DNA of 64,000 bases, taken from contig JACYXH010000007.1 in assembly GCA_026745465.1 (NCBI GenBank), positions 262,001 through 326,000 of the forward strand, given 5' to 3'. The position numbers and the translations under genes are program-made. This document shows, piece after piece, positions 254 to 37,700 of the stretch. Below the pieces are notes generated by a model. That model was not told the DNA's origin, did not search any database, and was given only the letters and a program-made list of their open reading frames with translations. The DNA comes from Lota lota. Lineage: Eukaryota; Chordata; Actinopteri; Gadiformes; Lotidae. Each line of letters opens with the position of its first letter. The first letter of the stretch is position 1.

Positions 254-7239
<6,986 letters not shown>

Positions 7240-9701: not shown

Positions 9702-10140
9702 CAATGAGAGTGATGGTGAGCAAGGGAAAGGGAAAGAGGGGTGAGAGTGAGGGATACAGTAGGAGGGGAAGAGGGAGAGACACTCGCGATTCCCAAGGCC
9801 CTGGCTCTGCTTTATCTTAATGTTTAACTCGACTCATTTCTGACATCCCGTCCAAGACGCTGGAGCACTTTCTCCACACTAGGAATGGAAGCAGAGATAA
9901 CGTTGCGTTGCAACATTTCGGCTAGTCACACGGAATGACCACATGGATATGAGATATATATATATGATATAGTTTTAGATATGATATAAATAGTAGATAG
10001 ATATGATAACTATATATATATAGTTATCGGCTTTTCTACCTTGAAAAACACATCGGACTCTCAGCCGGACACATACACACTCAGGACAGACACGCAGCAA
10101 ACACACACCGCACAACCTCCATCACCTCAGTATGGTACTT

Positions 10141-10223
<83 letters not shown>

Positions 10224-10495
10224 TTGCAAATCCAAATTTGAAGATGCAACATATTTGTTGGACTAGGTATTGTAAAGAATGTGATAAACTGTGACTACAA
10301 TTGTCAAAGCAGTAGCCTCTGTAGAAAAAAGGACAAAATGCACCATAGATATTGCTGTAAAGAACACTCTGCCCATGGCAAACAAATGCACAATACCTTT
10401 AGCACACGTCAAACGTTTAAACAGAGCCAGCATTGCATTGTGCTCGGTCCGTATCGCAACCAACAGCACATTCATCAGCCCAATTAATGTATCGA
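9702..10495 (+). other. unit 1 upstream block
   Basis: Non-coding sequence repeated upstream of every gene in the array. It includes a perfect 24-bp palindrome, GATAAC-(TA)6-GTTATC, at 10005-10028. It also includes the (CA)n tract at 10143-10222, which is the longest of the six: about 40 repeats against 8-30 elsewhere. Confidence 0.8.
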
Positions 10496-10501
10496 TATAA
10501 A
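10496..10501 (+). promoter_or_regulatory. TATA box, C1q unit 1
   Basis: TATAAA within ATCGATATAAATGAC, identical in all six units and always 73 bp before the first hairpin arm. It would place the start site near 10526, making the hairpins and minisatellite part of the 5' leader. Inferred; no transcript evidence. Confidence 0.5.
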
Positions 10502-10568
10502 TGACAACAGAAGAGTGTAGCGTCAGGAAACCACCTGTGGGAGTGTGTGTGGGTGATGGCTGGTTGAA

Positions 10569-10656
10569 GCAGCCTCACCTGGCCCGAGTCAGACTGATTG
10601 GACTCTGGGTGAGGCTGCACACCTGTTGCACATTGAGTAATCAGTGTGCAACAGGT
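10569..10656 (+). promoter_or_regulatory. double hairpin, C1q unit 1
   Basis: The first hairpin pairs GCAGCCTCACC (10569-10579) with GGTGAGGCTGC (10608-10618), with an inner GAGTC/GACTC helix. The second pairs ACCTGTTGCACATTGA with TCAGTGTGCAACAGGT around a GTAA loop (10621-10656), 15 of 16 bp complementary. The block is kept in all six units and could act as a structured 5' leader or a protein-binding palindrome. Confidence 0.65.
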
Positions 10657-10760
10657 AAAACCAGCCGTCTTACGAGCTGCACTAGGGCTGGAAGACCAGA
10701 CTAGAACGAGTGAGGACCAAATCGAGAGCCACCTGAAGGCAAACGAAACCACAAGACCAA

Positions 10761-10990
10761 ACCAAGGAGCACCTCAAGACCAGACCAAGGAGCACCTCAA
10801 GACCAGACCAAGGAGCACCTCAAGACCAGACCAAGGAGCACCTCAAGACCAGACCAAGGAGCACCTCAAGACCAGACCAAGGAGCACCTCAAGACCAGAC
10901 CAAGGAGCACCTCAACACTAGACCAAGGAGCACCTCAACACCAGACCAAGGAGCACCTCAACACCAGACCAAGGCGCACCTCAAGACCAA
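10761..10990 (+). repeat. 23-bp minisatellite, unit 1, 10 copies
   Basis: Copies begin with ACCAAGGAGCACCTC at 10761, 10784 and so on to 10968, exactly 23 bp apart. The last copies change CAAG to CAAC and GGAG to GGCG. The array ends 21 bp before the ATG, so it sits in the presumed 5' leader. The 23-mer has no stop codon in any forward frame, which creates a spurious open frame across it. Confidence 0.95.
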
Positions 10991-11011
10991 ACGGAAGTCC
11001 TGAAGAGAACC

Positions 11012-11725
11012 ATGGGGCGCACGCTCTTCCTCTTGGTGGCCTTCATCGTCTCCAGCGGCCAGTGCGACGATAACAACACCTCCTGGGGCAGCAGCGCCGG
11101 GTCGGACCTGGTCGCCGAGCTGGCCCCCTTGTGGGAGGCTCCGGTGGTGGCGGCGACGAGCACGAACGGCCGCCTGCTGGAGATCGTCCGCTTCCTGGTG
11201 ACGGAGATGACGGCGCTCGGGACCAGGCTAGGGGTCTACGGCGCCCAGACGCTGGCGCTGCGGAAGCTGCACGAGGAGCAGGCCCAGCGGATCGAGTCTC
11301 TGGAGGAGAGCAGGGCGGCCCGGGTGGCGTTCACCGCGGCGCTGGGCCACCCCGCCGGCCCCTTCCGGCGGGACACGGCGGTCAAGTACGATCAGGTCCT
11401 CTCCAACGTGGGCGGGGGCTACGACCAGGCCACGGGCACCTTCACCGCCGTGGTGCCCGGCACGTACTTCTTCAGCTACACCATGTACAACAACAACGTG
11501 GGCAAGCCCAACTCGGTGCTGTCGCTGATGAAGAACGGCGACAGGCTGGTGTCCACCTGGGACACGGCGGCGGAGGGCGACGTCCACGACAGCGCCACCA
11601 ACGCCGCCGTGGTCGAGCTGGTGGCCGGGGACGCCGTCTACGTCAATATGGACGCCCGCCGCGTGCTTTACGACGACGCCCACAACTACAACACCTTCAG
11701 CGGCTTCCTGCTCTTCCCTCTGTAA
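11012..11725 (+). CDS. secreted C1q-domain protein, array copy 1
   Basis: Intronless 237-codon gene with an ideal start context (ACCATGG). Residues 1-18 are a signal peptide (MGRTLFLLVAFIVSSGQC). Residues 21-24 (NNTS) hold overlapping N-glycosylation sequons. Residues about 54-103 are heptad-like (LLEIVRFLVTEM, LRKLHEEQAQRIESLEES), probably a trimerising coiled coil, with no collagen Gly-X-Y repeats. Residues about 104-237 are a C1q domain that fits the family signature: Y126, N132, Y137, F144, then GTYFFSY at 150-156. It ends GFLLFPL. The protein should be a secreted trimer like the teleost C1q-like or cerebellin-type proteins, whose roles include ligand binding and innate immunity; the ligand is unknown. 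Copy 1 has V46 and is the only copy with G70. It is much richer in GC than its flanks. Confidence 0.93.
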   Translation: MGRTLFLLVAFIVSSGQCDDNNTSWGSSAGSDLVAELAPLWEAPVVAATSTNGRLLEIVRFLVTEMTALGTRLGVYGAQTLALRKLHEEQAQRIESLEESRAARVAFTAALGHPAGPFRRDTAVKYDQVLSNVGGGYDQATGTFTAVVPGTYFFSYTMYNNNVGKPNSVLSLMKNGDRLVSTWDTAAEGDVHDSATNAAVVELVAGDAVYVNMDARRVLYDDAHNYNTFSGFLLFPL

Positions 11726-11863
11726 AAAGCCCCGTCGGCCATTTTGTTTTTGGTTGATTTGCCGGTGTGATGGTGGCTGGTTGAAAGGAGGGGGTTTGGT
11801 GCTTTGTGTTGACCAAAATATATATTTTGGATCTGTATGACCGTATTGAACAGCTTGAACACA

Positions 11864-11869
11864 AATAAA
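11864..11869 (+). terminator. poly(A) signal, C1q unit 1
   Basis: AATAAA 139 bp after the stop, followed by a GTGTGAGTTTTTT downstream element. Present at the same offset in every unit. Confidence 0.85.
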
Positions 11870-12728
11870 ATAATGTGATATTAACACGGTGTGAGTTTTT
11901 TGAAGGTAGAGGGGGGGGGGGGGGGGGATGTTTGTCAACTGGAGAGGTGGTGTGCGGTTTTGAATTAAATGCCTCTCCTCTTAGGAGTGATAGGGGTTTT
12001 GTCAATGAGTGATGGTGAGCAAGGGAAAGAGGGGTGAGGGATACAGTAGGAGGGGAAGAGGGAGAGACACTCGCGATTCCCAAGGCCCTGGGTCTGCTTT
12101 ATCTTAATGTTTAACTCGACTCATTTCTGACATCCCGTCCAAGACGCTGGAGCACTTTCTCCACACTAGGAATGGAAGCAGAGATAACGTTGCGTTGCAA
12201 CATTTCGGCTAGTCACACGGAATGACCACATGGATATGATATATATATATATATGATATAGTTTTAGATATGATATAAATAGTAGATAGATATGATAACT
12301 ATATATATATAGTTATCGGCTTTTCTACCTTGAAAAACACATCGGACTCTCAGCCGGACACATACACACTCAGGACAGACACGCAGCAAACACACACCGC
12401 ACAACCTCCATCACCTCAGTATGGTACTTTATACACACACACACACACACACACATTTGCAAATCCAAATTTGAAGATGCAACATATTTGTTGGACTAGG
12501 GATTGTAAAGAATGTGATAAACTGTGACTACAATTGTCAAAGCAGTAGCCTCTGTAGAAAAAAGAACAAAACGCATCATAGATATTGCTGTAAAGAACAC
12601 TCTGCCCATGGCAAACAAATGCACAATACCTTTAGCACACGTCAAACGTTTAAACAGAGCCAGCATTGCATTGTGCTCGGTCCGTATCGCAACCAACAGC
12701 ACATTCATCAGCCCAATTAATGTATCGA
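11870..12728 (+). other. unit 1-2 spacer and unit 2 upstream block
   Basis: Poly-G (11911-11927), the inverted word CCTCTCCTCTTAGGAG near 11972, the unit border at 12003, the AT palindrome at about 12294-12318 and a short (CA)n tract (12433-12455). Its promoter-proximal variant (GGGATTGTAAAG, AACGCATCAT) is shared only with unit 5. Confidence 0.8.
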
Positions 12729-12734
12729 TATAAA
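12729..12734 (+). promoter_or_regulatory. TATA box, C1q unit 2
   Basis: TATAAA in the same conserved context as unit 1. Confidence 0.5.
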
Positions 12735-12801
12735 TGACAACAGAAGAGTGTAGCGTCAGGAAACCACCTGTGGGAGTGTGTGTGGGTGATGGCTGGTTGA
12801 A

Positions 12802-12889
12802 GCAGCCTCACCTGGCCCGAGTCAGACTGATTGGACTCTGGGTGAGGCTGCACACCTGTTGCACATTGAGTAATCAGTGTGCAACAGGT
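12802..12889 (+). promoter_or_regulatory. double hairpin, C1q unit 2
   Basis: Both stems are unchanged from unit 1, including the GTAA-loop hairpin at 12854-12889. Confidence 0.65.
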
Positions 12890-12993
12890 AAAACCAGCCA
12901 TCTTACGAGCTGCACTAGGGCTGGAAGACCAGACTAGAACGAGTGAGGACCAAATCGAGAGCCACCTGAAGGCAAACGAAACCACAAGGTCAG

Positions 12994-13131
12994 ACCAAGG
13001 AGCACCTCAACACCAGACCAAGGAGCACCTCAACACCAGACCAAGGAGCACCTCAACACCAGACCAAGGAGCACCTCAACACCAGACCAAGGAGCACCTC
13101 AACACCAGACCAAGGAGCACCTCAAGACCAA
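12994..13131 (+). repeat. 23-bp minisatellite, unit 2, 6 copies
   Basis: Shortest version in the array. Nearly all copies are of the CAAC type. Confidence 0.95.
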
Positions 13132-13152
13132 ACGGAAGTCCTGAAGAGAACC

Positions 13153-13866
13153 ATGGGGCGCACGCTCTTCCTCTTGGTGGCCTTCATCGTCTCCAGCGGC
13201 CAGTGCGACGATAACAACACCTCCTGGGGCAGCAGCGCCGGGTCGGACCTGGTCGCCGAGCTGGCCCCCTTGTGGGAGGCTCCGGTGGCGGCGGCGACGA
13301 GCACGAACGGCCGCCTGCTGGAGATCGTCCGCTTCCTGGTGACGGAGATGACGGCGCTCCACACCAGGCTAGGGGTCTACGGCGCCCAGACGCTGGCGCT
13401 GCGGAAGCTGCACGAGGAGCAGGCCCAGCGGATCGAGTCTCTGGAGGAGAGCAGGGCGGCCCGGGTGGCGTTCACCGCGGCGCTGGGCCACCCCGCCGGC
13501 CCCTTCCGGCGGGACACGGCGGTCAAGTACGATCAGGTCCTCTCCAACGTGGGCGGGGGCTACGACCAGGCCACGGGCACCTTCACCGCCGTGGTGCCCG
13601 GCACGTACTTCTTCAGCTACACCATGTACAACAACAACGTGGGAAAGCCCAACTCGGTGCTGTCGCTGATGAAGAACGGCGACAGGCTGGTGTCCACCTG
13701 GGACACGGCGGCGGAGGGCGACGTCCACGACAGCGCCACCAACGCCGCCGTGGTCGAGCTGGTGGCCGGGGACGCCGTCTACGTCAATATGGACGCCCGC
13801 CGCGTGCTTTATGACGACGCCCACAACTACAACACCTTCAGCGGCTTCCTGCTCTTCCCTCTGTAA
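13153..13866 (+). CDS. secreted C1q-domain protein, array copy 2
   Basis: Full-length 237-codon copy with the same start context, signal peptide, coiled coil and C1q signature as copy 1. It differs from copy 1 by A46 and H70. It also carries a few silent changes, for example GGA for GGC in the GKPNS segment and TAT for TAC at Y220. No disabling change. The start is fixed by the leader and the ACCATGG context shared with the other copies. Confidence 0.92.
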   Translation: MGRTLFLLVAFIVSSGQCDDNNTSWGSSAGSDLVAELAPLWEAPVAAATSTNGRLLEIVRFLVTEMTALHTRLGVYGAQTLALRKLHEEQAQRIESLEESRAARVAFTAALGHPAGPFRRDTAVKYDQVLSNVGGGYDQATGTFTAVVPGTYFFSYTMYNNNVGKPNSVLSLMKNGDRLVSTWDTAAEGDVHDSATNAAVVELVAGDAVYVNMDARRVLYDDAHNYNTFSGFLLFPL

Positions 13867-14004
13867 AAAGCCCCGTCGGCCATTTTGTTTTTGGTTGATT
13901 TGCCGGTGTGATGGTGGCTGGTTGAAAGGAGGGGGTTTGGTGCTTTGTGTTGACCAAAATATATATTTTGGATCTGTATGACCGTATTGAACAGCTTGAA
14001 CACA

Positions 14005-14010
14005 AATAAA
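14005..14010 (+). terminator. poly(A) signal, C1q unit 2
   Basis: AATAAA at the array-standard offset, 852 bp from the ATG. Confidence 0.85.
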
Positions 14011-14553
14011 ATAATGTGATATTAACACGGTGTGAGTTTTTTGAAGGTGGGGGGGGGGGGGGGGGGGGATGTTTGTCAACTGGAGAGGTGGTGTGCGGTT
14101 TTGAATTAAATGCCTCTCCTCTTAGGAGTGATAGGGGTTTTGTCAATGAGTGATGGTGAGCAAGGGAAAGAGGGGTGAGGGATACAGTAGGAGGGGAAGA
14201 GGGAGAGACACTGGCGATTCCCAAGGCCCTGGGTCTGCTTTATCTTAATGTTTAACTCGACTCATTTCTGACATCCCGTCCAAGACGCTGGAGCACTTTC
14301 TCCACACTAGGAATGGAAGCAGAGATAACGTTGCGATGCAACATTTCGGCTAGTCACACGGAACGACCACATGTATATGATATAGATATGATATAGATAG
14401 TAGATATGATAACTATATATATATAGTTATCGGCTTTTCTACCTTGAAAAACATATCGGACTCTCAGCCGGACACACACACTCAGGACAGACACGCAGCA
14501 AACACACACCGCACAACCTCAGTCACCTCAGTATGGTACTTTATACACACACA

Positions 14554-14604
<51 letters not shown>

Positions 14605-15021
14605 CAGGGTTCCCTTCAACAAAAACACCACCCATGCCAGTCTCACACCCAAGAACTGGCCGCAAAAGGGTATTCACCCTTAAAGTGGACGCTTTGAAAC
14701 ATTTCAACTCATTTAGCGGACGACTTTGGCAGCATGCACTCCATGCTGCATCGACTTCCAAATTTGAAGATGCAACATATTTGTTGGACTAGGTATTGTA
14801 AATAATGTGATAAACTGTGACTACAATTGTCAAAGCAGTAGCCTCTGTAGAAAAAAGGACAAAATGCACCATAGATATTGCTGTTAAGAACACTCTGCCC
14901 ATGGCAAACAAATGCACAATACCTTTAGCACACGTCAAACGTTTAAACAGAGCCAGCATTGCATTGTGCTCGGTCCGTATCGCAACCAACAGCACATTCA
15001 TCAGCCCAATTAATGTATCGA
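14011..15021 (+). other. unit 2-3 spacer and unit 3 upstream block
   Basis: Poly-G (about 14049-14068), border at 14144, AT palindrome near 14410-14431, (CA)n tract (14543-14602, interrupted once by AA), then the unit-3-specific insertion (14603-14758). Confidence 0.8.
14603..14758 (+). other. insertion specific to unit 3
   Basis: Where the other five units read (CA)n followed by TTTGCAAATCC, unit 3 has about 156 bp of unrelated sequence (GCAGGGTTCCCTTCAAC to CTGCATCGACTTCC). It has no clear terminal repeats. It is either an insertion beside the CA tract or an ancestral segment lost from the others. Confidence 0.85.
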
Positions 15022-15027
15022 TATAAA
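15022..15027 (+). promoter_or_regulatory. TATA box, C1q unit 3
   Basis: TATAAA in the conserved context, unaffected by the insertion upstream. Confidence 0.5.
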
Positions 15028-15094
15028 TGACAACAGAAGAGTGTAGCGTCAGGAAACCACCTGTGGGAGTGTGTGTGGGTGATGGCTGGTTGAA

Positions 15095-15182
15095 GCAGCC
15101 TCACCTGGCCCGAGTCAGACTGATTGGACTCTGGGTGAGGCTGCACACCTGTTGCACATTGAGTAATCAGTGTGCAACAGGT
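15095..15182 (+). promoter_or_regulatory. double hairpin, C1q unit 3
   Basis: Both stems intact. The second hairpin lies at 15147-15182. Confidence 0.65.
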
Positions 15183-15286
15183 AAAACCAGCCATCTTACG
15201 AGCTGCACTAGGGCTGGAAGACCAGACTAGAACGAGTGAGGACCAAATCGAGAGCCACCTGAAGGCAAACGAAACCACAAGGTCAG

Positions 15287-15493
15287 ACCAAGGAGCACCT
15301 CAACACCAGACCAAGGAGCACCTCAACACCAGACCAAGGAGCACCTCAACACCAGACCAAGGAGCACCTCAACACCAGACCAAGGAGCACCTCAACACCA
15401 GACCAAGGAGCACCTCAACACCAGACCAAGGAGCACCTCAACACCAGACCAAGGAGCACCTCAACACCAGACCAAGGCGCACCTCAAGACCAA
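15287..15493 (+). repeat. 23-bp minisatellite, unit 3, 9 copies
   Basis: All of the CAAC type except the last, which carries GGCG and CAAG. Confidence 0.95.
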
Positions 15494-15514
15494 ACGGAAG
15501 TCCTGAAGAGAACC

Positions 15515-16228
15515 ATGGGGCGCACGCTCTTCCTCTTGGTGGCTTTCATCGTCTCCAGCGGCCAGTGCGACGATAACAACACCTCCTGGGGCAGCAGCGC
15601 CGGGTCGGACCTGGTCGCCGAGCTGGCCCCCTTGTGGGAGGCTCCGGTGGCGGCGGCGACGAGCACGAACGGCCGCCTGCTGGAGATCGTCCGCTTCCTG
15701 GTGACGGAGATGACGGCGCTCCACACCAGGCTAGGGGTCTACGGCGCCCAGACGCTGGCGCTGCGGAAGCTGCACGAGGAGCAGGCCCAGCGGATCGAGT
15801 CTCTGGAGGAGAGCAGGGCGGCCCGGGTGGCGTTCACCGCGGCGCTGGGCCACCCCGCCGGCCCCTTCCGGCGGGACACGACGGTCAAGTACGATCAGGT
15901 CCTCTCCAACGTGGGCGGGGGCTACGACCAGGCCACGGGCACCTTCACCGCCGTGGTGCCCGGCACGTACTTCTTCAGCTACACCATGTACAACAACAAC
16001 GTGGGCAAGCCCAACTCGGTGCTGTCGCTGATGAAGAACGGCGACAGGCTGGTGTCCACCTGGGACACGGCGGCGGAGGGCGACGTCCACGACGGCGCCA
16101 CCAACGCCGCCGTGGTCGAGCTGGTGGCCAGGGACTCCGTCTACGTCAATATGGACGCCCGCCGTGTGCTTTACGACGACGCCCACAACTACAACACCTT
16201 CAGCGGCTTCCTGCTCTTCCCTCTGTAA
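15515..16228 (+). CDS. secreted C1q-domain protein, array copy 3
   Basis: Full-length copy and the most divergent in the C1q domain: T123, G194, R206 and S208 where copy 1 has A, S, G and A. It has A46 and H70 like copy 2. G206R falls in the VELVAGDAVYV segment, which lies on a domain strand in the family, so it is the change most likely to affect folding or ligand binding. No frameshift or stop. Confidence 0.92.
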   Translation: MGRTLFLLVAFIVSSGQCDDNNTSWGSSAGSDLVAELAPLWEAPVAAATSTNGRLLEIVRFLVTEMTALHTRLGVYGAQTLALRKLHEEQAQRIESLEESRAARVAFTAALGHPAGPFRRDTTVKYDQVLSNVGGGYDQATGTFTAVVPGTYFFSYTMYNNNVGKPNSVLSLMKNGDRLVSTWDTAAEGDVHDGATNAAVVELVARDSVYVNMDARRVLYDDAHNYNTFSGFLLFPL

Positions 16229-16366
16229 AAAGCCCCGTCGGCCATTTTGTTTTTGGTTGATTTGCCGGTGTGATGGTGGCTGGTTGAAAGGAGGGGGTTT
16301 GGTGCTTTGTGTTGACCAAAATATATATTTTGGATCTGTATGACCGTATTGAACAGCTTGAACACA

Positions 16367-16372
16367 AATAAA
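16367..16372 (+). terminator. poly(A) signal, C1q unit 3
   Basis: AATAAA followed by extra A bases (AATAAAAAAATG), a variant shared with unit 5. Confidence 0.85.
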
Positions 16373-17220
16373 AAAATGTGATATTAACACGGTGTGAGTT
16401 TTGTTTTTTGAAGGTAGAGGGGGGGGGGGGGGGGATGTTTGTCAACTGGAGAGGTGGTGTGCGGTTTTTAATTAAATGCCTCTCCTCTTAGGAGTGATAG
16501 GGGTTTTGTCAATGAGTGATGGTGAGCAAGGGAAAGAGGGGTGAGGTATACAGTAGGAGGGGAAGAGGGAGAGACACTCGTGATTCCCAAGGCCCTGGCT
16601 CTGCTTTATCTTAATGTTTAACTCGACTCATTTCTGACATCCCGTCCAAGCCGCTGGAGCACTTTCTCCACACTAGGAATGGAAGCAGAGATAACGTTGC
16701 GATGCAACATTTCGGCTAGTCACACGGAACGACCACATGGATATGAGATATATATGATACAGATATGATATAGATAGGTAGATAGATATGATAACTATAT
16801 ATATATATATAGTTATCGGCTTTTCTACCTTGAAAAACACATCGGACTCTCAGCCGGACACATACACACTCAGGACAGACACGCAGCAAACACACCGCAC
16901 AACCTCCATCACCTCAGTATGGTACTTTATACACACACACACACACACATTTGCAAATCCAAATTTGAAGATGCAACATATTTGTTGGACTAGGTATTGT
17001 AAAGAATGTGATAAACTGTGACTACAATTGTCAAAGCAGTAGCCTCTGTAGAAAAAAGGACAAAATGCACCATAGATATTGCAGTAAAGAACACTGCCCA
17101 TGGCAAACAAATGCACAATACCTTTAGCACACGTCAAACGTTTAAACAGAGCCAGCATTGCATTGTGCTCGGTCCGTATCGCAACCAACAGCACATTCAT
17201 CAGCCCAATTAATGTATCGA
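16373..17220 (+). other. unit 3-4 spacer and unit 4 upstream block
   Basis: Carries variants GTTTTTAATTAAATG, GAGGTATACAG, CTCGTGATTCCC and CAAGCCGCTGG, found again only in the unit 5-6 spacer, and AGTAAAGAACACTGCCC, found again only upstream of gene 6. Confidence 0.8.
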
Positions 17221-17226
17221 TATAAA
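17221..17226 (+). promoter_or_regulatory. TATA box, C1q unit 4
   Basis: TATAAA in the conserved context. Confidence 0.5.
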
Positions 17227-17293
17227 TGACAACAGAAGAGTGTAGCGTCAGGAAACCACCTGTGGGAGTGTGTGTGGGTGATGGCTGGTTGAA

Positions 17294-17381
17294 GCAGCCT
17301 CACCTGGCCCGAGTCAGACTGATTGGACTCTGGGTGAGGCTGCACACCTGTTGCACATTGAGTAATCAGTGTGCAACAGGT
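17294..17381 (+). promoter_or_regulatory. double hairpin, C1q unit 4
   Basis: Both stems intact. The second hairpin lies at 17346-17381. Confidence 0.65.
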
Positions 17382-17485
17382 AAAACCAGCCATCTTACGA
17401 GCTGCACTAGGGCTGGAAGACCAGACTACAACGAGTGAGGACCAAATCGAGAGCCACCTGAAGGCAAACGAAACCACAAGGTCAG

Positions 17486-17692
17486 ACCAAGGCGCACCTC
17501 AACACCAGACCAAGGCGCACCTCAACACCAGACCAAGGCGCTCCTCAAGACCAGACCAAGGAGCACCTCAAGACCAGACCAAGGAGCACCTCAAGACCAG
17601 ACCAAGGAGCACCTCAACACCAGACCAAGGAGCACCTCAACACCAGACCAAGGAGCACCTCAACACCAGACCAAGGCGCACCTCAAGACCAA
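17486..17692 (+). repeat. 23-bp minisatellite, unit 4, 9 copies
   Basis: Contains the GGCGCTCC variant as third copy followed by CAAG-type copies, a pattern nearly the same as in unit 6. Confidence 0.95.
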
Positions 17693-17713
17693 ACGGAAGT
17701 CCTGAAGAGAACC

Positions 17714-18427
17714 ATGGGGCGCACGCTCTTCCTCTTGGTGGCCTTCATCGTCTCCAGCGGCCAGTGCGACGATAACAACACCTCCTGGGGCAGCAGCGCC
17801 GGGTCGGACCTGGTCGCCGAGCTGGCCCCCTTGTGGGAGGCTCCGGTGGCGGCGGCGACGAGCACGAACGGCCGCCTGCTGGAGATCGTCCGCTTCCTGG
17901 TGATGGAGATGACGGCGCTCCGGACCAGGCTAGGGGTCTACGGCGCCCAGACGCTGGCGCTGCGGAAGCTGCACGAGGAGCAGGCCCAGCGGATCGAGTC
18001 TCTGGAGGAGAGCAGGGCGGCCCGGGTGGCGTTCACCGCGGCGCTGGGCCACCCCGCCGGCCCCTTCCGGCGGGACACGACGGTCAAGTACGATCAGGTC
18101 CTCTCCAACGTGGGCGGGGGCTACGACCAGGCCACGGGCACCTTCACCGCCGTGGTGCCCGGCACGTACTTCTTCAGCTACACCATGTACAACAACAACG
18201 TGGGCAAGCCCAACTCGGTGCTGTCGCTGATGAAGAACGGCGACAGGCTGGTGTCCACCTGGGACACGGCGGCGGAGGGCGACGTCCACGACAGCGCCAC
18301 CAACGCCGCCGTGGTCGAGCTGGTGGCCGGGGACGCCGTCTACGTCAATATGGACGCCCGCCGCGTGCTTTACGACGACGCCCACAACTACAACACCTTC
18401 AGCGGCTTCCTGCTCTTCCCTCTGTAA
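17714..18427 (+). CDS. secreted C1q-domain protein, array copy 4
   Basis: Full-length copy with A46, M64 (Thr in all others), R70 and T123. The M64 change is in the predicted coiled coil (FLVMEM), where a hydrophobic residue is tolerated. Signal peptide, sequons and C1q signature are unchanged. Confidence 0.92.
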   Translation: MGRTLFLLVAFIVSSGQCDDNNTSWGSSAGSDLVAELAPLWEAPVAAATSTNGRLLEIVRFLVMEMTALRTRLGVYGAQTLALRKLHEEQAQRIESLEESRAARVAFTAALGHPAGPFRRDTTVKYDQVLSNVGGGYDQATGTFTAVVPGTYFFSYTMYNNNVGKPNSVLSLMKNGDRLVSTWDTAAEGDVHDSATNAAVVELVAGDAVYVNMDARRVLYDDAHNYNTFSGFLLFPL

Positions 18428-18565
18428 AAAGCCCCGTCGGCCATTTTGTTTTTGGTTGATTTGCCGGTGTGATGGTGGCTGGTTGAAAGGAGGGGGTTTG
18501 GTGCTTTGTGTTGACCAAAATATATATTTTGGATCTGTATGACTGTATTGAACAGCTTGAACACA

Positions 18566-18571
18566 AATAAA
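18566..18571 (+). terminator. poly(A) signal, C1q unit 4
   Basis: AATAAA followed at once by ATGTG. A few bases are missing relative to unit 1. Confidence 0.85.
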
Positions 18572-19401
18572 ATGTGATATTAACACGGTGTGAGTTTTTT
18601 GAAGGTAGGGGGGGGGGGGATGTTTGTCAACTGGAGAGGTGGTGTGCGGTTTTGAATTAAATGCCTCTCCTCTTAGGAGTGATAGGGGTTTTGTCAATGA
18701 GTGATGGTGAGCAAGGGAAAGAGGGGTGAGGGATACAGTAGGAGGGGAAGAGGGAGAGACACTCGCGATTCCCAAGGCCCTGGCTCTGCTTTATCTTAAT
18801 GTTTAACTCGACTCATTTCTGACATCCCGTCCAAGACGCTGGAGCACTTTCTCCACACTAGGAATGGAAGCAGAGATAACGTTGCGATGCAACATTTCGG
18901 CTAGTCACACGGAACGACCACATGGATATGAGATATATATGATATAGATATGATATAGATAGGTAGATAGATATGATAACTATATATATATAGTTATCGG
19001 CTTTTCTACCTTGAAAAACACATCGGACTCTCAGCCGGACACATACACACTCAGGACAGACACGCAGCAAACACACACCGCACAACCTCCATCACCTCAG
19101 TATGGTACTTTATACACACACACACACATTTGCAAATCCAAATTTGAAGATGCAACATATTTGTTGGACTAGGGATTGTAAAGAATGTGATAAACTGTGA
19201 CTACAATTGTCAAAGCAGTAGCCTCTGTAGAAAAAAGAACAAAACGCATCATAGATATTGCTGTAAAGAACACTCTGCCCATGGCAAACAAATGCACAAT
19301 ACCTTTAACACACGTCAAACGTTTAAACAGAGCCAGCATTGCATTGTGCTCGGTCCGTATCGCAACCAACAGCACATTCATCAGCCCAATTAATGTATCG
19401 A
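18572..19401 (+). other. unit 4-5 spacer and unit 5 upstream block
   Basis: Shortest poly-G (about 18609-18619) and shortest (CA)n tract (about 19113-19128) in the array. The promoter-proximal variant matches unit 2. Confidence 0.8.
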
Positions 19402-19407
19402 TATAAA
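19402..19407 (+). promoter_or_regulatory. TATA box, C1q unit 5
   Basis: TATAAA in the conserved context. Confidence 0.5.
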
Positions 19408-19474
19408 TGACAACAGAAGAGTGTAGCGTCAGGAAACCACCTGTGGGAGTGTGTGTGGGTGATGGCTGGTTGAA

Positions 19475-19562
19475 GCAGCCTCACCTGGCCCCAGTCAGAC
19501 TGATTGGACTCTGGGTGAGGCTGCACACCTGTTGCACATTGAGTAATCAGTGTGCAACAGGT
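19475..19562 (+). promoter_or_regulatory. double hairpin, C1q unit 5
   Basis: The second hairpin (19527-19562) is unchanged. The inner helix of the first has CCCCAGTC instead of CCCGAGTC, which loses one pair. Confidence 0.6.
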
Positions 19563-19666
19563 AAAACCAGCCGTCTTACGAGCTGCACTAGGGCTGGAAG
19601 ACCAGACTAGAACGAGTGAGGACCAAATCGAGAGCCACCTGAAGGCAAACGAAACCACAAGGTCAG

Positions 19667-19987
19667 ACCAAGGAGCACCTCAACACCAGACCAAGGAGCA
19701 CCTCAACACCAGACCAAGGAGCACCTCAACACCAGACCAAGGAGCACCTCAACACCAGACCAAGGAGCACCTCAACACCAGACCAAGGAGCACCTCAACA
19801 CCAGACCAAGGAGCACCTCAACACCAGACCAAGGAGCACCTCAACACCAGACCAAGGAGCACCTCAACACCAGACCAAGGAGCACCTCAACACCAGACCA
19901 AGGCGCACCTCACAACAAACCAAGGAGCACCTCAACACCAGACCAAGGCGCTCCTCAACACCAGACCAAGGAGCACCTCAAGACCAA
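19667..19987 (+). repeat. 23-bp minisatellite, unit 5, 14 copies
   Basis: Longest version in the array. One copy near 19910-19920 (CTCACAACAAACC) is altered and one base shorter, so total spacing is 298 rather than 299 bp. Confidence 0.93.
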
Positions 19988-20008
19988 ACGGAAGTCCTGA
20001 AGAGAACC

Positions 20009-20722
20009 ATGGGGCGCACGCTCTTCCTCTTGGTGGCCTTCATCGTCTCCAGCGGCCAGTGCGACGATAACAACACCTCCTGGGGCAGCAGCGCCGGGTC
20101 GGACCTGGTCGCCGAGCTGGCCCCCTTGTGGGAGGCTCCGGTGGTGGCGGCGACGAGCACGAACGGCCGCCTGCTGGAGATCGTCCGCTTCCTGGTGACG
20201 GAGATGACGGCGCTCCGGACCAGGCTAGGGGTCTACGGCGCCCAGACGCTGGCGCTGCGGAAGCTGCACGAGGAGCAGGCCCAGCGGATCGAGTCTCTGG
20301 AGGAGAGCAGGGCGGCCCGGGTGGCGTTCACCGCGGCGCTGGGCCACCCCGCCGGCCCCTTCCGGCGGGACACGGCGGTCAAGTACGATCAGGTCCTCTC
20401 CAACGTGGGCGGGGGCTACGACCAGGCCACGGGCACCTTCACCGCCGTGGTGCCCGGCACGTACTTCTTCAGCTACACCATGTACAACAACAACGTGGGC
20501 AAGCCCAACTCGGTGCTGTCGCTGATGAAGAACGGCGACAGGCTGGTGTCCACCTGGGACACGGCGGCGGAGGGCGACGTCCATGACAGCGCCACCAACG
20601 CCGCCGTGGTCGAGCTGGTGGCCGGGGACGCCGTCTACGTCAATATGGACGCCCGCCGCGTGCTTTACGACGACGCCCACAACTACAACACCTTCAGCGG
20701 CTTCCTGCTCTTCCCTCTGTAA
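20009..20722 (+). CDS. secreted C1q-domain protein, array copy 5
   Basis: Full-length copy with V46 (shared only with copy 1) and R70 (shared with copies 4 and 6). The C1q domain is the same as in copies 1 and 2. One silent change, CAT for CAC at H192. No disabling change. Confidence 0.92.
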   Translation: MGRTLFLLVAFIVSSGQCDDNNTSWGSSAGSDLVAELAPLWEAPVVAATSTNGRLLEIVRFLVTEMTALRTRLGVYGAQTLALRKLHEEQAQRIESLEESRAARVAFTAALGHPAGPFRRDTAVKYDQVLSNVGGGYDQATGTFTAVVPGTYFFSYTMYNNNVGKPNSVLSLMKNGDRLVSTWDTAAEGDVHDSATNAAVVELVAGDAVYVNMDARRVLYDDAHNYNTFSGFLLFPL

Positions 20723-20860
20723 AAAGCCCCGTCGGCCATTTTGTTTTTGGTTGATTTGCCGGTGTGATGGTGGCTGGTTGAAAGGAGGGGGTTTGGTGCT
20801 TTGTGTTGACCAAAATATATATTTTGGATCTGTATGACCGTATTGAACAGCTTGAACACA

Positions 20861-20866
20861 AATAAA
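20861..20866 (+). terminator. poly(A) signal, C1q unit 5
   Basis: AATAAA with the A-extended variant shared with unit 3. Confidence 0.85.
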
Positions 20867-21715
20867 AAAATGTGATATTAACACGGTGTGAGTTTTTTGA
20901 AGGTAGAGGGGGGGGGGGGGGGGATGTTTGTCAACTGGAGAGGTGGTGTGCGGTTTTTAATTAAATGCCTCTCCTCTTAGGAGTGATAGGGGTTTTGTCA
21001 ATGAGTGATGGTGAGCAAGGGAAAGAGGGGTGAGGTATACAGTAGGAGGGGAAGAGGGAGAGACACTCGTGATTCCCAAGGCCCTGGCTCTGCTTTATCT
21101 TAATGTTTAACTCGACTCATTTCTGACATCCCGTCCAAGCCGCTGGAGCACTTTCTCCACACTAGGAATGGAAGCAGAGATAACGTTGCGATGCAACATT
21201 TCGGCTAGTCACACGGAACGACCACATGGATATGAGATATATATGATATAGATATGATATAGATAGGTAGATAGATATGATAACTATATATATATATATA
21301 TATAGTTATCGGCTTTTCTACCTTGAAAAACACATCGGACTCTCAGCCGGACACATACACACTCAGGACAGACACGCAGCAAACACACCGCACAACCTCC
21401 ATCACCTCAGTATGGTACTTTATACACACACACACACACACACATTTGCAAATCCAAATTTGAAGATGCAACATATTTGTTGGACTAGGTATTGTAAAGA
21501 ATGTGATAAACTGTGACTACAATTGTCAAAGCAGTAGCCTCTGTAGAAAAAAGGACAAAATGCACCATAGATATTGCAGTAAAGAACACTGCCCATGGCA
21601 AACAAATGCACAATACCTTTAGCACACGTCAAACGTTTAAACAGAGCCAGCATTGCATTGTGCTCGGTCCGTATCGCAACCAACAGCACATTCATCAGCC
21701 CAATTAATGTATCGA
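20867..21715 (+). other. unit 5-6 spacer and unit 6 upstream block
   Basis: Nearly the same as the unit 3-4 spacer, including all its diagnostic variants. The (CA)n tract is at about 21423-21444. Confidence 0.8.
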
Positions 21716-21721
21716 TATAAA
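21716..21721 (+). promoter_or_regulatory. TATA box, C1q unit 6
   Basis: TATAAA in the conserved context. Confidence 0.5.
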
Positions 21722-21788
21722 TGACAACAGAAGAGTGTAGCGTCAGGAAACCACCTGTGGGAGTGTGTGTGGGTGATGGCTGGTTGAA

Positions 21789-21876
21789 GCAGCCTCACCT
21801 GGCCCGAGTCAGACTGATTGGACTCTGGGTGAGGCTGCACACCTGTTGCACATTGAGTAATCAGTGTGCAACAGGT
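21789..21876 (+). promoter_or_regulatory. double hairpin, C1q unit 6
   Basis: Both stems intact. The second hairpin lies at 21841-21876. Confidence 0.65.
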
Positions 21877-21980
21877 AAAACCAGCCGTTTTACGAGCTGC
21901 ACTAGGGCTGGAAGACCAGACTAGAACGAGTGAGGACCAAATCGAGAGCCACCTGAAGGCAAACGAAACCACAAGGTCAA

Positions 21981-22187
21981 ACCAAGGAGCACCTCAACAC
22001 CAGACCAAGGAGCACCTCAACACCAGACCAAGGCGCTCCTCAACACCAGACCAAGGAGCACCTCAAGACCAGACCAAGGAGCACCTCAAGACCAGACCAA
22101 GGAGCACCTCAACACCAGACCAAGGAGCACCTCAACACCAGACCAAGGAGCACCTCAACACCAGACCAAGGCGCACCTCAAGACCAA
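21981..22187 (+). repeat. 23-bp minisatellite, unit 6, 9 copies
   Basis: Same copy number as unit 4 and the same third-copy GGCGCTCC variant. Confidence 0.95.
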
Positions 22188-22208
22188 ACGGAAGTCCTGA
22201 AGAGAACC

Positions 22209-22922
22209 ATGGGGCGCACGCTCTTCCTCTTGGTGGCCTTCATCGTCTCCAGCGGCCAGTGCGACGATAACAACACCTCCTGGGGCAGCAGCGCCGGGTC
22301 GGACCTGGTCGCCGAGCTGGCCCCCTTGTGGGAGGCTCCGGTGGCGGCGGCGACGAGCACGAACGGCCGCCTGCTGGAGATCGTCCGCTTCCTGGTGACG
22401 GAGATGACGGCGCTCCGGACCAGGCTAGGGGTCTACGGCGCCCAGACGCTGGCGCTGCGGAAGCTGCACGAGGAGCAGGCCCAGCGGATCGAGTCTCTGG
22501 AGGAGAGCAGGGCGGCCCGGGTGGCGTTCACCGCGGCGCTGGGCCACCCCGCCGGCCCCTTCCGGCGGGACACGGCGGTCAAGTACGATCAGGTCCTCTC
22601 CAACGTGGGCGGGGGCTACGACCAGGCCACGGGCACCTTCACCGCCGTGGTGCCCGGCACGTACTTCTTCAGCTACACCATGTACAACAACAACGTGGGC
22701 AAGCCCAACTCGGTGCTGTCGCTGATGAAGAACGGCGACAGGTTGGTGTCCACCTGGGACACGGCGGCGGAGGGCGACGTCCACGACAGCGCCACCAACG
22801 CCGCCGTGGTCGAGCTGGTGGCCGGGGACTCCGTCTACGTCAATATGGACGCCCGCCGTGTGCTTTACGACGACGCCCACAACTACAACACCTTCAGCGG
22901 CTTCCTGCTCTTCCTTCTGTAA
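22209..22922 (+). CDS. secreted C1q-domain protein, array copy 6
   Basis: Full-length copy with A46, R70, S208 (shared with copy 3) and L236, so it ends FLLFLL instead of FLLFPL. The C-terminal Pro-to-Leu change is unique. It is the last unit before the array breaks off at 23197. Confidence 0.92.
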   Translation: MGRTLFLLVAFIVSSGQCDDNNTSWGSSAGSDLVAELAPLWEAPVAAATSTNGRLLEIVRFLVTEMTALRTRLGVYGAQTLALRKLHEEQAQRIESLEESRAARVAFTAALGHPAGPFRRDTAVKYDQVLSNVGGGYDQATGTFTAVVPGTYFFSYTMYNNNVGKPNSVLSLMKNGDRLVSTWDTAAEGDVHDSATNAAVVELVAGDSVYVNMDARRVLYDDAHNYNTFSGFLLFLL

Positions 22923-23060
22923 AAAGCCCCGTCGGCCATTTTGTTTTTGGTTGATTTGCCGGTGTGATGGTGGCTGGTTGAAAGGAGGGGGTTTGGTGCT
23001 TTGTGTTGACCAAAATATATATTTTGGATCTGTATGACTGTATTGAACAGCTCGAACACA

Positions 23061-23066
23061 AATAAA
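23061..23066 (+). terminator. poly(A) signal, C1q unit 6
   Basis: AATAAA at the standard offset. Confidence 0.85.
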
Positions 23067-23197
23067 ATAATGTGATATTAACACGGTGTGAGTTTTTTGA
23101 AGGTAGAGGGGGGGGGGGGGGGGGGATGTTTGTCAACTGGATAGGTGGTGTGCGGTTTTGAATTGAATGCCTCTCCTCTTAGGAGTGATAGGGGTTT

Positions 23198-23845: not shown

Positions 23846-23978
23846 ATGGAGGAGGTGCTGTTGATAGTCGAGGTACAGAAATGCAGCGAGTCGTACGACC
23901 CCAGACATTGCTTATACAAGGACAAATTAAAGAAAGACGCCATTTGGAGGACAATTGGTGGTGTCATTGGAGCTTCAG
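23846..23978 (+). pseudogene. MADF-domain-like first exon, probably transposon-derived
   Basis: ATG at 23846 opens 44 codons that read like the N-terminal half of a MADF/Myb-SANT-like DNA-binding domain: VQKCSESYDPRHCLYKDKLK then KDAIWRTIGGVIG. The YD-x-x-H-x-x-YKDK-x-KKD-x-xW pattern is typical. It ends at a good donor (CAG|GTGAGT). I could not find the second half of the domain downstream. It may be a live first exon whose partner is beyond recognition, or a remnant of a PIF/Harbinger-type transposon, which carries such proteins. Confidence 0.5.
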
Positions 23979-27278: not shown

Positions 27279-31649
<4,371 letters not shown>

Positions 31650-36761: not shown

Positions 36762-36916
36762 GCCCGCGTTGATCACGTTGAGGAATGCCGTACCATTAGA
36801 AGCACTACCCGTGTTCGTTTGAGGGGAGTAGAAAGTTGACCGTCCACTTTCCAAGTGGTGCATTCCCAACCCACGTAGAAGTGCTTGTGAATACCTACCA
36901 ACAGGTAGAAGGCATC
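36762..36916 (+). other. pawr: 5' UTR part of the first coding exon of pawr
   Basis: From the acceptor CTCTTTACTAG to the chosen ATG. Translation through this part in the same frame lacks homology to Par-4. Confidence 0.6.
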
Positions 36917-37543
36917 ATGGCAGCGGGTGGATTCAAACCGAACGCAACGACAGACTTCTTGGAAGAATGGAAGGCTAAACGTGAGAAAATGCGGCTGAAA
37001 ATGCTCGGGGACATTGCCGCGGCCACTGGTGCGGGCGCAGGTAACGTGGGTGCAGGGAACGTGGGGGCAGGTAACGTGGGGGCTGGTAACGTGGGGGCTG
37101 GTAACGTGGGTGCCTCCCCCAGCGCGCCCCTAGGTACCAGCAACAGCAATAAAAGCACTCCAAACATCGAGCTCAATAACAATGGAAACCCTGAGCGCGG
37201 GGGCGCTGCCGGGAATACCGCGTCGTCTTGCCAACCTTTAGCGCGATCAATGTCGTCCCCGGCCTTGAAAAAACAACCCGAGGCGGACACTCATCCCGCG
37301 CCAGCCACGCCAGGAAGTAACCCGAAGAAGTCCCATCAGACGGAGAAGCCTCCGTGCCCGTCACTGGACTCGAGCCCTGCGGCGGAGGTTGACGTTGACA
37401 ACCAGGAGAGTCCGTCACCCAGCAAGGGGAAGGACAAGAAGAGCACGGGCCCTAGTGCCAGGAAGGGAAAGGGACAAATAGAGAAGAGAAAGTTACGAGA
37501 GAAGCGCCGATCAACAGGTGTTGTCAGCTTAGCATCCAACGAG
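36917..37543 (+). CDS. pawr: pawr (Par-4), first coding exon
   Basis: Encodes residues 1-209 of prostate apoptosis response 4, a pro-apoptotic scaffold acting in nucleus and cytoplasm. The ATG at 36917 (ATCATGG) starts MAAGGFKPNATTDFLEEWKA; human Par-4 has TTDFLEEWKAKREKM at the same place. Residues 40-64 are five tandem GAGNV repeats. Residues 85-89, ELNNN, are the SPSB/GUSTAVUS-binding motif known from human Par-4. Residues 178-200 (GPSARKGKGQIEKRKLREKR then RST) match the SAC-domain nuclear signal, with T200 in the PKA site RRST. The exon ends in phase 0 at GAG|GTGAGT. The C-terminal leucine zipper, which binds partners including MYPT1, must lie beyond 64000. The middle of the exon is low-complexity and diverged from mammals. 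Confidence 0.96.
37034..37108 (+). repeat. 15-bp coding minisatellite in pawr (5 copies)
   Basis: Five copies of a GGTAACGTGGG-type unit encoding GAGNV, in frame. Likely polymorphic in copy number without shifting the frame. Confidence 0.93.
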
Positions 37544-37700
37544 GTGAGTCATTTCGCCGACCCCACTTTGTTTGTTTGTTTGTTTGTTTTTGTTTACCAC
37601 CCGTTGCTTTGGTTGTACAAGTCACAGCCATCGAACACCCACAAACAAACCTGAAGCACCTTGCAACATGCCTAACATATCCATTTCTGTTCAAATCATG

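What the first reader, a model, noticed from the sequence alone, without database searches (positions are those of the whole stretch)
9702..23197. Six-unit tandem array of intronless secreted C1q genes between ppp1r12a and pawr
Seen: six intact 237-codon genes, each with its own TATA box, 5' leader and poly(A) signal, in 2.1-2.4 kb direct repeats. Known: teleosts have many C1q-domain proteins used in innate recognition. Inference: this is a recently amplified, possibly gadid-specific, secreted recognition factor family. An array with complete promoters suggests gene dosage rather than diversification. The signal peptide plus coiled coil plus C1q layout without collagen is simple, and the gene has no intron at all, which fits an origin by retrocopy or from an already intronless ancestor.
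Basis: partly seen in the sequence, partly recalled or inferred. Interest (0 to 1): 0.8.

Follow-up and report, generated by a model that had tools for sequence, protein, structure and literature searches.

The report
Six-copy fish C1q gene array
A fish genome that looks cod-like carries six nearly identical genes, each with one coding exon, for a small C1q-type protein that is probably secreted, each with a piece of an old retroelement upstream; it looks like a variation on a well-known protein family rather than a new kind of system.

Summary
Six intact 237-codon, single-coding-exon genes (98.6-99.7% identical in DNA to copy 1) lie in direct repeats of 2.1-2.4 kb between ppp1r12a and pawr. 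The protein has a hydrophobic N terminus, a helix and a C1q domain, no collagen. The genome looks gadiform (no MHC II beta candidate, 100 MHC I matches). Its only close relative there is one intronless gene elsewhere (L007, 58%). Array and L007 share upstream DNA, leader, CDS and early 3' UTR, so the array came by DNA duplication of an already intronless gene; three distant relatives have a predicted C1q-domain intron that both lack. New: (i) every unit carries the first 135 bp of a solo LTR (about 337 bp) upstream, absent from L007; (ii) a 23-bp tandem repeat of varying length makes up much of the ATG-free leader; (iii) L007's cysteine pair is missing; (iv) the apparent dN/dS of 1.6-1.7 against L007 is a GC3 artefact (modelled omega 0.42-0.46). 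Best reading: a dosage-amplified, secreted, trimeric C1q factor resembling trout TCBP1 or C1q-LP3. No expression, protein or cross-species data.

The parts
9708..23197 (+). whole tandem array, six direct units
   Evidence: blastn of unit 2 against the window; unit alignment, cut from 9702
11012..11725 (+). C1q gene copy 1, 237 aa, single coding exon
13153..13866 (+). C1q gene copy 2
15515..16228 (+). C1q gene copy 3 (most divergent unit)
17714..18427 (+). C1q gene copy 4
20009..20722 (+). C1q gene copy 5
22209..22922 (+). C1q gene copy 6
10748..10989 (+). 23-bp tandem repeat in the leader of copy 1 (10.5 copies)
   Evidence: TRF
12991..13130 (+). 23-bp tandem repeat, leader of copy 2 (6.1 copies)
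15284..15492 (+). 23-bp tandem repeat, leader of copy 3 (9.1 copies)
17483..17691 (+). 23-bp tandem repeat, leader of copy 4 (9.1 copies)
19664..19986 (+). 23-bp tandem repeat, leader of copy 5 (14.1 copies)
21981..22186 (+). 23-bp tandem repeat, leader of copy 6 (9.0 copies)
10536..10670 (+). first 135 bp of a solo LTR, upstream region of unit 1
   Evidence: genome search with the unit 2 spacer, alignment to 20 genomic copies, target duplications in those copies, coordinates
12769..12903 (+). LTR fragment, unit 2
15062..15196 (+). LTR fragment, unit 3
17261..17395 (+). LTR fragment, unit 4
19442..19576 (+). LTR fragment, unit 5
21756..21890 (+). LTR fragment, unit 6 (end read by eye; the script's junction pattern missed this unit)
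12539..12768 (+). upstream block shared with the L007 paralog (shown for unit 2), holding GATATAAATGACAA
   Evidence: alignment with L007
11864..11869 (+). poly(A) signal AATAAA of copy 1 (same place in all six)

Best explanation
A six-copy dosage array of one secreted C1q-domain protein. Shown: the array gene and the intronless gene L007 are DNA-level duplicates that share upstream DNA, leader, coding sequence and early 3' UTR; all six units carry a solo-LTR fragment upstream that L007 lacks; the array protein lacks L007's cysteine pair; the units are near-identical with a mosaic of site patterns. Inferred: the LTR arrived, and the cysteines went, before amplification (gain of the cysteines in L007 is not excluded); unequal crossing-over and gene conversion keep the copies alike; each unit is transcribed alone, with part of its core promoter now supplied by the LTR fragment; the A/C-rich, ATG-free leader suits efficient translation; the product is secreted, trimerises through coil and C1q head without inter-chain disulfides, and binds microbial or damaged-cell ligands as a soluble innate recognition or acute-phase factor, like trout TCBP1 and C1q-LP3. 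Amplification raises output rather than diversity.
For: Six intact ORFs; C1q domain; AlphaFold helix 52-99 and strands between 106 and 236, with the C1QL1 head as top PDB match, E 4.4e-14. One 1502-column alignment at 70% with L007, from about 610 bases before the ATG of unit 2 to about 100 bases past the stop. Solo-LTR identity: 10 of 20 genomic copies with exact 5-bp target duplications, 6 more with 4 of 5 letters, against 1 of 342 exact for swapped flanks. LTR fragment at the same place in 6 of 6 units, not seen in L007. Cysteines: only residue 18 in all six copies; 17, 33 and 38 in L007. Conflicting site patterns among units. Array against L007 omega 0.46 (copy 1) and 0.42 (copy 2), below 1 (2dlnL 7.5 and 10.1). 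Trout C1q-LP3 (256 aa) and TCBP1 (245 aa) have a leader peptide and C1q domain, trimerise and rise in plasma on infection (PMC10623068, sections 3.6 and 4.3 read).
Against: No expression, protein, ligand or copy-number data. Trout sequences were not at hand, so the link to TCBP1/C1q-LP3 rests on layout, size and family. An upstream TATAAA is present in both array and L007, so the LTR piece may merely lie in a 5' UTR; the transcript would then hold one upstream ATG, inside the LTR fragment, in every unit. Leader RNA of unit 1 is neither more nor less folded than shuffles (z 0.76), so nothing marks it as specially open. Intactness of six copies says little at 1-3% divergence. Within the array 10 non-synonymous and 6 synonymous sites vary and pairwise NG86 ratios run from 0.24 to 1.01: no strong constraint. 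Residues 1-51 are modelled with pLDDT below 50.
Confidence: 0.6

Rival explanations
1. Neutral tandem amplification: unequal crossing-over at repeat-rich DNA multiplied a dispensable gene; homogenisation keeps copies alike, and extra dosage has no function.
For: Very low divergence makes intact frames expected without selection; 10 non-synonymous against 6 synonymous variable sites; spacers with AC, AT and 23-bp repeats; mosaic site patterns.
Against: Array-L007 omega is below 1, so the lineage was under constraint at least for part of its past; every unit keeps start context, AATAAA and both TATA-like boxes.
Confidence: 0.25
2. A cerebellin/C1q-like neuronal or metabolic ligand (receptor binding) rather than an innate recognition factor.
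For: The best single heads among solved structures are C1QL1-3, Caprin-2 and cerebellin-1.
Against: No cysteine pair, cysteine-rich region or collagen; only 28-36% identity to those heads; the matches reflect which heads have been solved; near-identical amplification would be unusual for such ligands (inference).
Confidence: 0.1
3. Assembly artefact: haplotype copies or misjoined repeats inflate the number of units.
For: Units are near-identical; how the assembly was made is unknown.
Against: A doubled block of three would pair units 1-4, 2-5 and 3-6; the closest pairs are 4-6 (17 differences), 2-5 (20) and 1-5 (26), and unit 3 is far from all (39-58). The 23-bp repeat number varies among units from 6.1 to 14.1. 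No N.
Confidence: 0.05

Closest known systems
Trout TCBP1 (C-polysaccharide-binding protein) and C1q-LP3 (PMC10623068, sections 3.6 and 4.3 read)
   Same: Small C1q-domain protein with leader peptide (here by eye), 237 aa against 245 and 256; trimer reported for both trout proteins and expected here from the family
   Different: Sequence relation not tested. C1q-LP3 also forms higher multimers; the array protein has no cysteine for covalent ones. Induction and sugar binding unknown here.
L007 paralog in the same genome (C300:343702-344436, -)
   Same: Intronless; 58% identical; shared upstream block, leader motif and early 3' UTR; AATAAA (by eye)
   Different: Single copy; 245 aa with CQPDSC; no LTR fragment; no regular 23-bp array in the leader
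Cerebellins (Cbln1-4)
   Same: C1q head (cerebellin-1 head 5kc5, E 2.6e-14); secreted without collagen (recalled)
   Different: No N-terminal cysteine pair; that such a pair joins Cbln1 trimers into hexamers is recalled, not from a call
C1QL1-4 (C1q-like)
   Same: Closest head fold in PDB (C1QL1)
   Different: C1QL3 has a cysteine-rich region and a collagen-like part (PMC12048575, passages seen); the array protein has neither
Complement C1q A/B/C
   Same: C1q head
   Different: No collagen stalk, hence no route to C1r/C1s by the known mechanism (recalled)

Membership tests
C1q-domain protein (Pfam PF00386) | C1q domain above the curated cut-off | tested here: met
   96 and 91.1 bits against cut-off 23.7, copies 1 and 3, the two scanned
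Secreted globular-head C1q (no collagen) | helix or coiled coil then C1q; no Gly-X-Y stretch | tested here: met
   Helix 52-99 then strands; sequences read by eye
Secreted globular-head C1q (no collagen) | cleavable signal peptide | tested here: inconclusive
   Hydrophobic N terminus by eye; no signal-peptide program was available
Cerebellin | N-terminal cysteine pair linking trimers | tested here: not met
   Only Cys18 in 6 of 6 copies; the feature itself is recalled
C1QL1-4 | cysteine-rich region and collagen part | tested here: not met
   Absent from the sequence; feature from passages of PMC12048575 on C1QL3
Complement C1q subunit | collagen-like stalk | tested here: not met
   Absent
TCBP1/C1q-LP3-like acute-phase C1q | size and C-terminal C1q domain | tested here: met
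   237 aa against 245 and 256 aa
TCBP1/C1q-LP3-like acute-phase C1q | trimer in plasma, induction by infection, ligand binding | not testable with these tools
   No expression or protein data
TCBP1/C1q-LP3-like acute-phase C1q | sequence orthology | not tested
   No fish protein set is held; the one paper found for TCBP1 gave no sequence in the parts read
Processed retrocopy (for the array itself) | copy lacks the parent's promoter and introns | tested here: not met
   Upstream DNA shared with L007, which is itself intronless
Solo LTR (the dispersed repeat of which each unit holds the first 135 bp) | TG...CA ends and target-site duplication in genomic copies | tested here: met
   19 of 20 copies begin TGTGGGAG (L060 begins CATGGGAG); a TACA end was found in 18 of 20; 10 of 20 exact 5-bp duplications, 6 of 20 with 4 of 5 letters; control 1 of 342. 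The array's own piece lacks the 3' end, so it has no testable duplication

The most novel reading that the evidence does not exclude
A solo LTR took over the core promoter of an immune effector gene; the LTR-driven gene was then amplified sixfold, with a length-variable 23-bp repeat leader tuning each copy's translation, to mass-produce a cysteine-free, low-avidity C1q trimer in a fish without MHC class II.
Probability: 0.2. Interest if true: 0.65.

Novelty: new member of a known kind. Interest (0 to 1): 0.4.

Why it matters
Atlantic cod lacks the MHC class II pathway, and how such fish fight bacteria is an open question (abstract of PMC7588623). A dosage-amplified soluble C1q factor with an LTR-altered promoter would be a concrete, testable candidate for compensation and a clean case of retroelement rewiring followed by tandem amplification. 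Otherwise it is one more C1q expansion in a teleost.

Tried and rejected
Positive selection: the NG86 ratio between array and L007 is 1.56-1.74 over the six copies, and for copy 1 mismatches by codon position are 76, 47 and 38 over 234 codons, the reverse of the usual order. Both follow from third positions at about 96% G+C: with codon frequencies modelled (GY94, F3x4; copies 1 and 2 only) omega is 0.46 and 0.42 and a value of 1 is rejected (2dlnL 7.52 and 10.09). In that call the fit for residues 1-32 did not converge (dS ran to infinity); the coil alone (omega 0.57, 2dlnL 1.2) does not reject 1; the C1q domain alone (0.43, 2dlnL 4.1) does so narrowly.

Special conservation of the promoter among units: the longest invariant run is 183 columns, but 419 of 5000 shuffles reach it; dropped.

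Structured or specially open leader RNA: for unit 1 the z-score is 0.76 and 75 of 100 shuffles fold at least as well; neither.

Type of the LTR element: two 2-kb pieces between two LTR hits on contig C7 (L070, L071) hold 18 frames of 60 aa or more; 5 of the 18 were scanned and gave no Pfam match. The family of the element stays open.

Species: the burbot assembly paper (PMC8650494, passages seen) gives 583.78 Mb; the genome here has 575.3 Mb; not identified.

Papers: searches (5 papers, all listed; 40, 15 listed; 21, 12 listed; 203, 12 listed; C1q with ppp1r12a and pawr; 3, unrelated by title; 3) showed no report of this array in titles or abstract starts. The lists were partial and only open-licence papers are held, so this does not show it is unpublished. 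PMC7588623 mentions Atlantic cod cells, mostly in the spleen, that express a 'C1QL2' (one passage); whether this is the present gene cannot be told. PMC2939893 was seen in a listing only.
Full report
What is there. Six open frames of 237 codons lie on the + strand between 11012 and 22922, in direct repeats with start-to-start distances of 2141, 2362, 2199, 2295 and 2200 bp. Against copy 1 the others are 98.6-99.7% identical over all 714 bases; outside the six, no blastn or tblastn match in the window has E below 1. Homology between units was seen from 9708 to 23197. Each unit has the same start context and an AATAAA 139 bases after the stop (6 of 6). Left of the array is the last-exon fragment of ppp1r12a (PRKG1_interact, E 3.4e-11) at 7171-7239; right of it pawr, recognised by eye in the ORF at 36800-37654.

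The protein. Pfam finds one C1q domain at 106-234 in both copies scanned (copy 1, E 2.5e-27; copy 3, E 8.3e-26). The AlphaFold model has a helix at 52-99 and strands between 106 and 236; mean pLDDT is 73.9, but residues 1-51 are below 50. Foldseek's best solved match is the C1QL1 head (E 4.4e-14, TM 0.90 on the target). By sequence the top rows are multi-head fusion chains of cerebellin-1, C1q and adiponectin; the best single head is C1q-related factor (E 3.8e-20). There is no collagen stretch. The only cysteine is residue 18 in all six copies, which I take, by eye, to be the end of the signal peptide; no signal-peptide program was run.

The genome. The window lies in a genome of 575 Mb in 867 contigs. 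The search for MHC class II beta gave 0 candidates, with the tool's warning that, since no control genome rang, this alone does not show absence. The search for MHC class I gave 100 matches from 100 scored candidates in the same genome, although the control genomes do not ring for it either. Class II alpha was not searched. The species was not identified.

Relatives. A whole-genome search with copy 1 gives 37 matches: the six copies, one 58% full-length relative (L007, contig C300), and 30 weaker ones of 24-48% identity. Searching with L007 again puts the six copies next and all others far behind (40 matches). L007 is intronless, 245 aa. Unit 2 and L007 give one 1502-column alignment at 70%, from about 610 bases before the ATG, which is about 230 bases before the LTR fragment, to about 100 bases past the stop. 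A retrocopy would not carry the upstream DNA, so the array gene and L007 are DNA duplicates of an intronless gene.

The deeper intron history. Of four weaker relatives examined for this, L008, L015 and L027 have a predicted phase-1 intron (GT-AG, no transcripts) at the same glycine codon of the C1q domain; L009, like the array and L007, has none there. A tree of 21 C1q domains (2 of the 6 copies, L007 and 18 of the 30 weaker matches; midpoint root) puts these four with array and L007 (support 79), and array with L007 at 100. Loss in the array-L007 ancestor, possibly by retroposition, is the simplest reading; supports of 72-88 within that group, and the second loss needed for L009, leave room for others. 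The 12 weaker matches left out of the tree were not examined.

The LTR fragment. A genome search with the spacer of unit 2 gave 45 matches: 8 array pieces, 34 copies of a stretch of about 135 bp and 1 partial copy elsewhere, and 2 AT-rich matches at one place; only 40 of 2337 first-look candidates were scored, so this is a lower bound. Twenty of the copies were fetched. Nineteen of 20 begin TGTGGGAG and one CATGGGAG; a TACA end was found in 18 of 20. Ten of 20 have exact 5-bp target duplications and 6 more have 4 of 5 letters; in these 16 the length is 280-340 bases, most often 337. Swapped flanks match exactly in 1 of 342 (where a copy had several TACA ends the best-matching one was taken). 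These are solo LTRs. The array units keep the first 135 bases, in gene orientation, ending just after GGTAAAACC, and then continue in the gene's own leader. L007 shows no clear similarity at that place and has its own TATTAATA. Since 6 of 6 units share the fragment with the same 5' junction and near-same 3' junction, it came before amplification. Whether it works as promoter is inference: an older GATATAAATGACAA box, also in L007, lies just upstream. If that box is used, each transcript holds one upstream ATG, inside the LTR fragment.

The leader. The 23-bp tandem repeat has 6.1 to 14.1 copies per unit. In the five units measured, the stretch from GGGCTGGAAG to the ATG is 235-418 bases long with 6% T and no ATG; the script's pattern failed in unit 4, but its ATG scan finds none after the LTR fragment there either. 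L007's leader holds irregular versions of the same motif (by eye). The leader RNA of unit 1 folds as well as shuffles do.

Cysteines. Aligned with L007 the array lacks 8 residues that include Cys33, and a serine stands at Cys38. Loss in the array is inferred; gain in L007 was not excluded. In cerebellin-1 N-terminal cysteines join trimers into hexamers (recalled). The expected array product is therefore a non-covalent trimer.

Evolutionary forces. Simple counting gives dN/dS 1.56-1.74 for array against L007, which would look like positive selection. With third positions at about 96% G+C in both, a codon model gives 0.46 (copy 1) and 0.42 (copy 2), significantly below 1. Within the array, 16 sites vary in 14 codons: 10 non-synonymous and 6 synonymous; pairwise NG86 ratios are 0.24-1.01, one undefined. 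At that divergence intact frames are expected anyway. Among units 72 ungapped columns vary; informative ones group 2 with 5, 4 with 6, 2 with 3, 3 with 6 and 1 with 2 in different places, which no single branching order explains; exchange between units does, though some single columns may be repeated mutation. The pattern does not fit a duplicated haplotype block.

Known context. Trout C1q-LP3 (256 aa, leader, C1q domain, trimer and higher multimers; 10.7 ug/mL in plasma of infected fish of a susceptible line against 0.1-0.2 in controls) and TCBP1 (245 aa, trimer, carbohydrate-binding, transcripts induced in liver) are described in PMC10623068 (sections 3.6 and 4.3 read), which also cites 52 C1q genes for zebrafish and calls the function of C1q-LP3 unknown. 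The array fits this class in size and layout. Membership by sequence was not tested.

Verdict. A real, intact, recently amplified or homogenised array of a known kind of fish gene, with an LTR fragment upstream, a variable repeat leader and missing cysteines as its unusual points. Function is inferred from family and layout.

Noticed in passing
window 23849-23977 (+): Open frame with weak similarity to MADF/Myb-SANT-like (E 0.0014, 19.4 bits, below the curated cut-off of 22) followed by gtgagt, about 650 bp after the array: possible exon 1 of a gene or of a Harbinger-type transposon (link recalled).
   Followed up: partly
window 37033-37110: A 15-bp repeat (5.2 copies) inside the pawr first-exon frame, encoding a GAGNV repeat.
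   Followed up: no
window 31431-31614: A 45-bp tandem repeat, 4.1 copies, 99% matches, in an open frame on the - strand.
   Followed up: no
L007 neighbourhood, G000:C300:331269-331754 (-): Open frame resembling CKAP4 (name recalled, not searched) about 12 kb from the L007 paralog.
   Followed up: no
genome G000, contigs C654, C823 and C169: Large clusters of MHC class I exons (100 matches, the number of candidates scored, a few on other contigs) and no MHC II beta candidate.
   Followed up: partly
G000:C376:1610478-1610958 (-): Two LTR copies about 340 bases apart, perhaps LTRs in tandem.
   Followed up: no
array CDS codon 70 (e.g. 11219-11221): One coil codon has three states, GGG, CAC and CGG (Gly, His, Arg); all three positions vary among six otherwise near-identical copies.
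   Followed up: no
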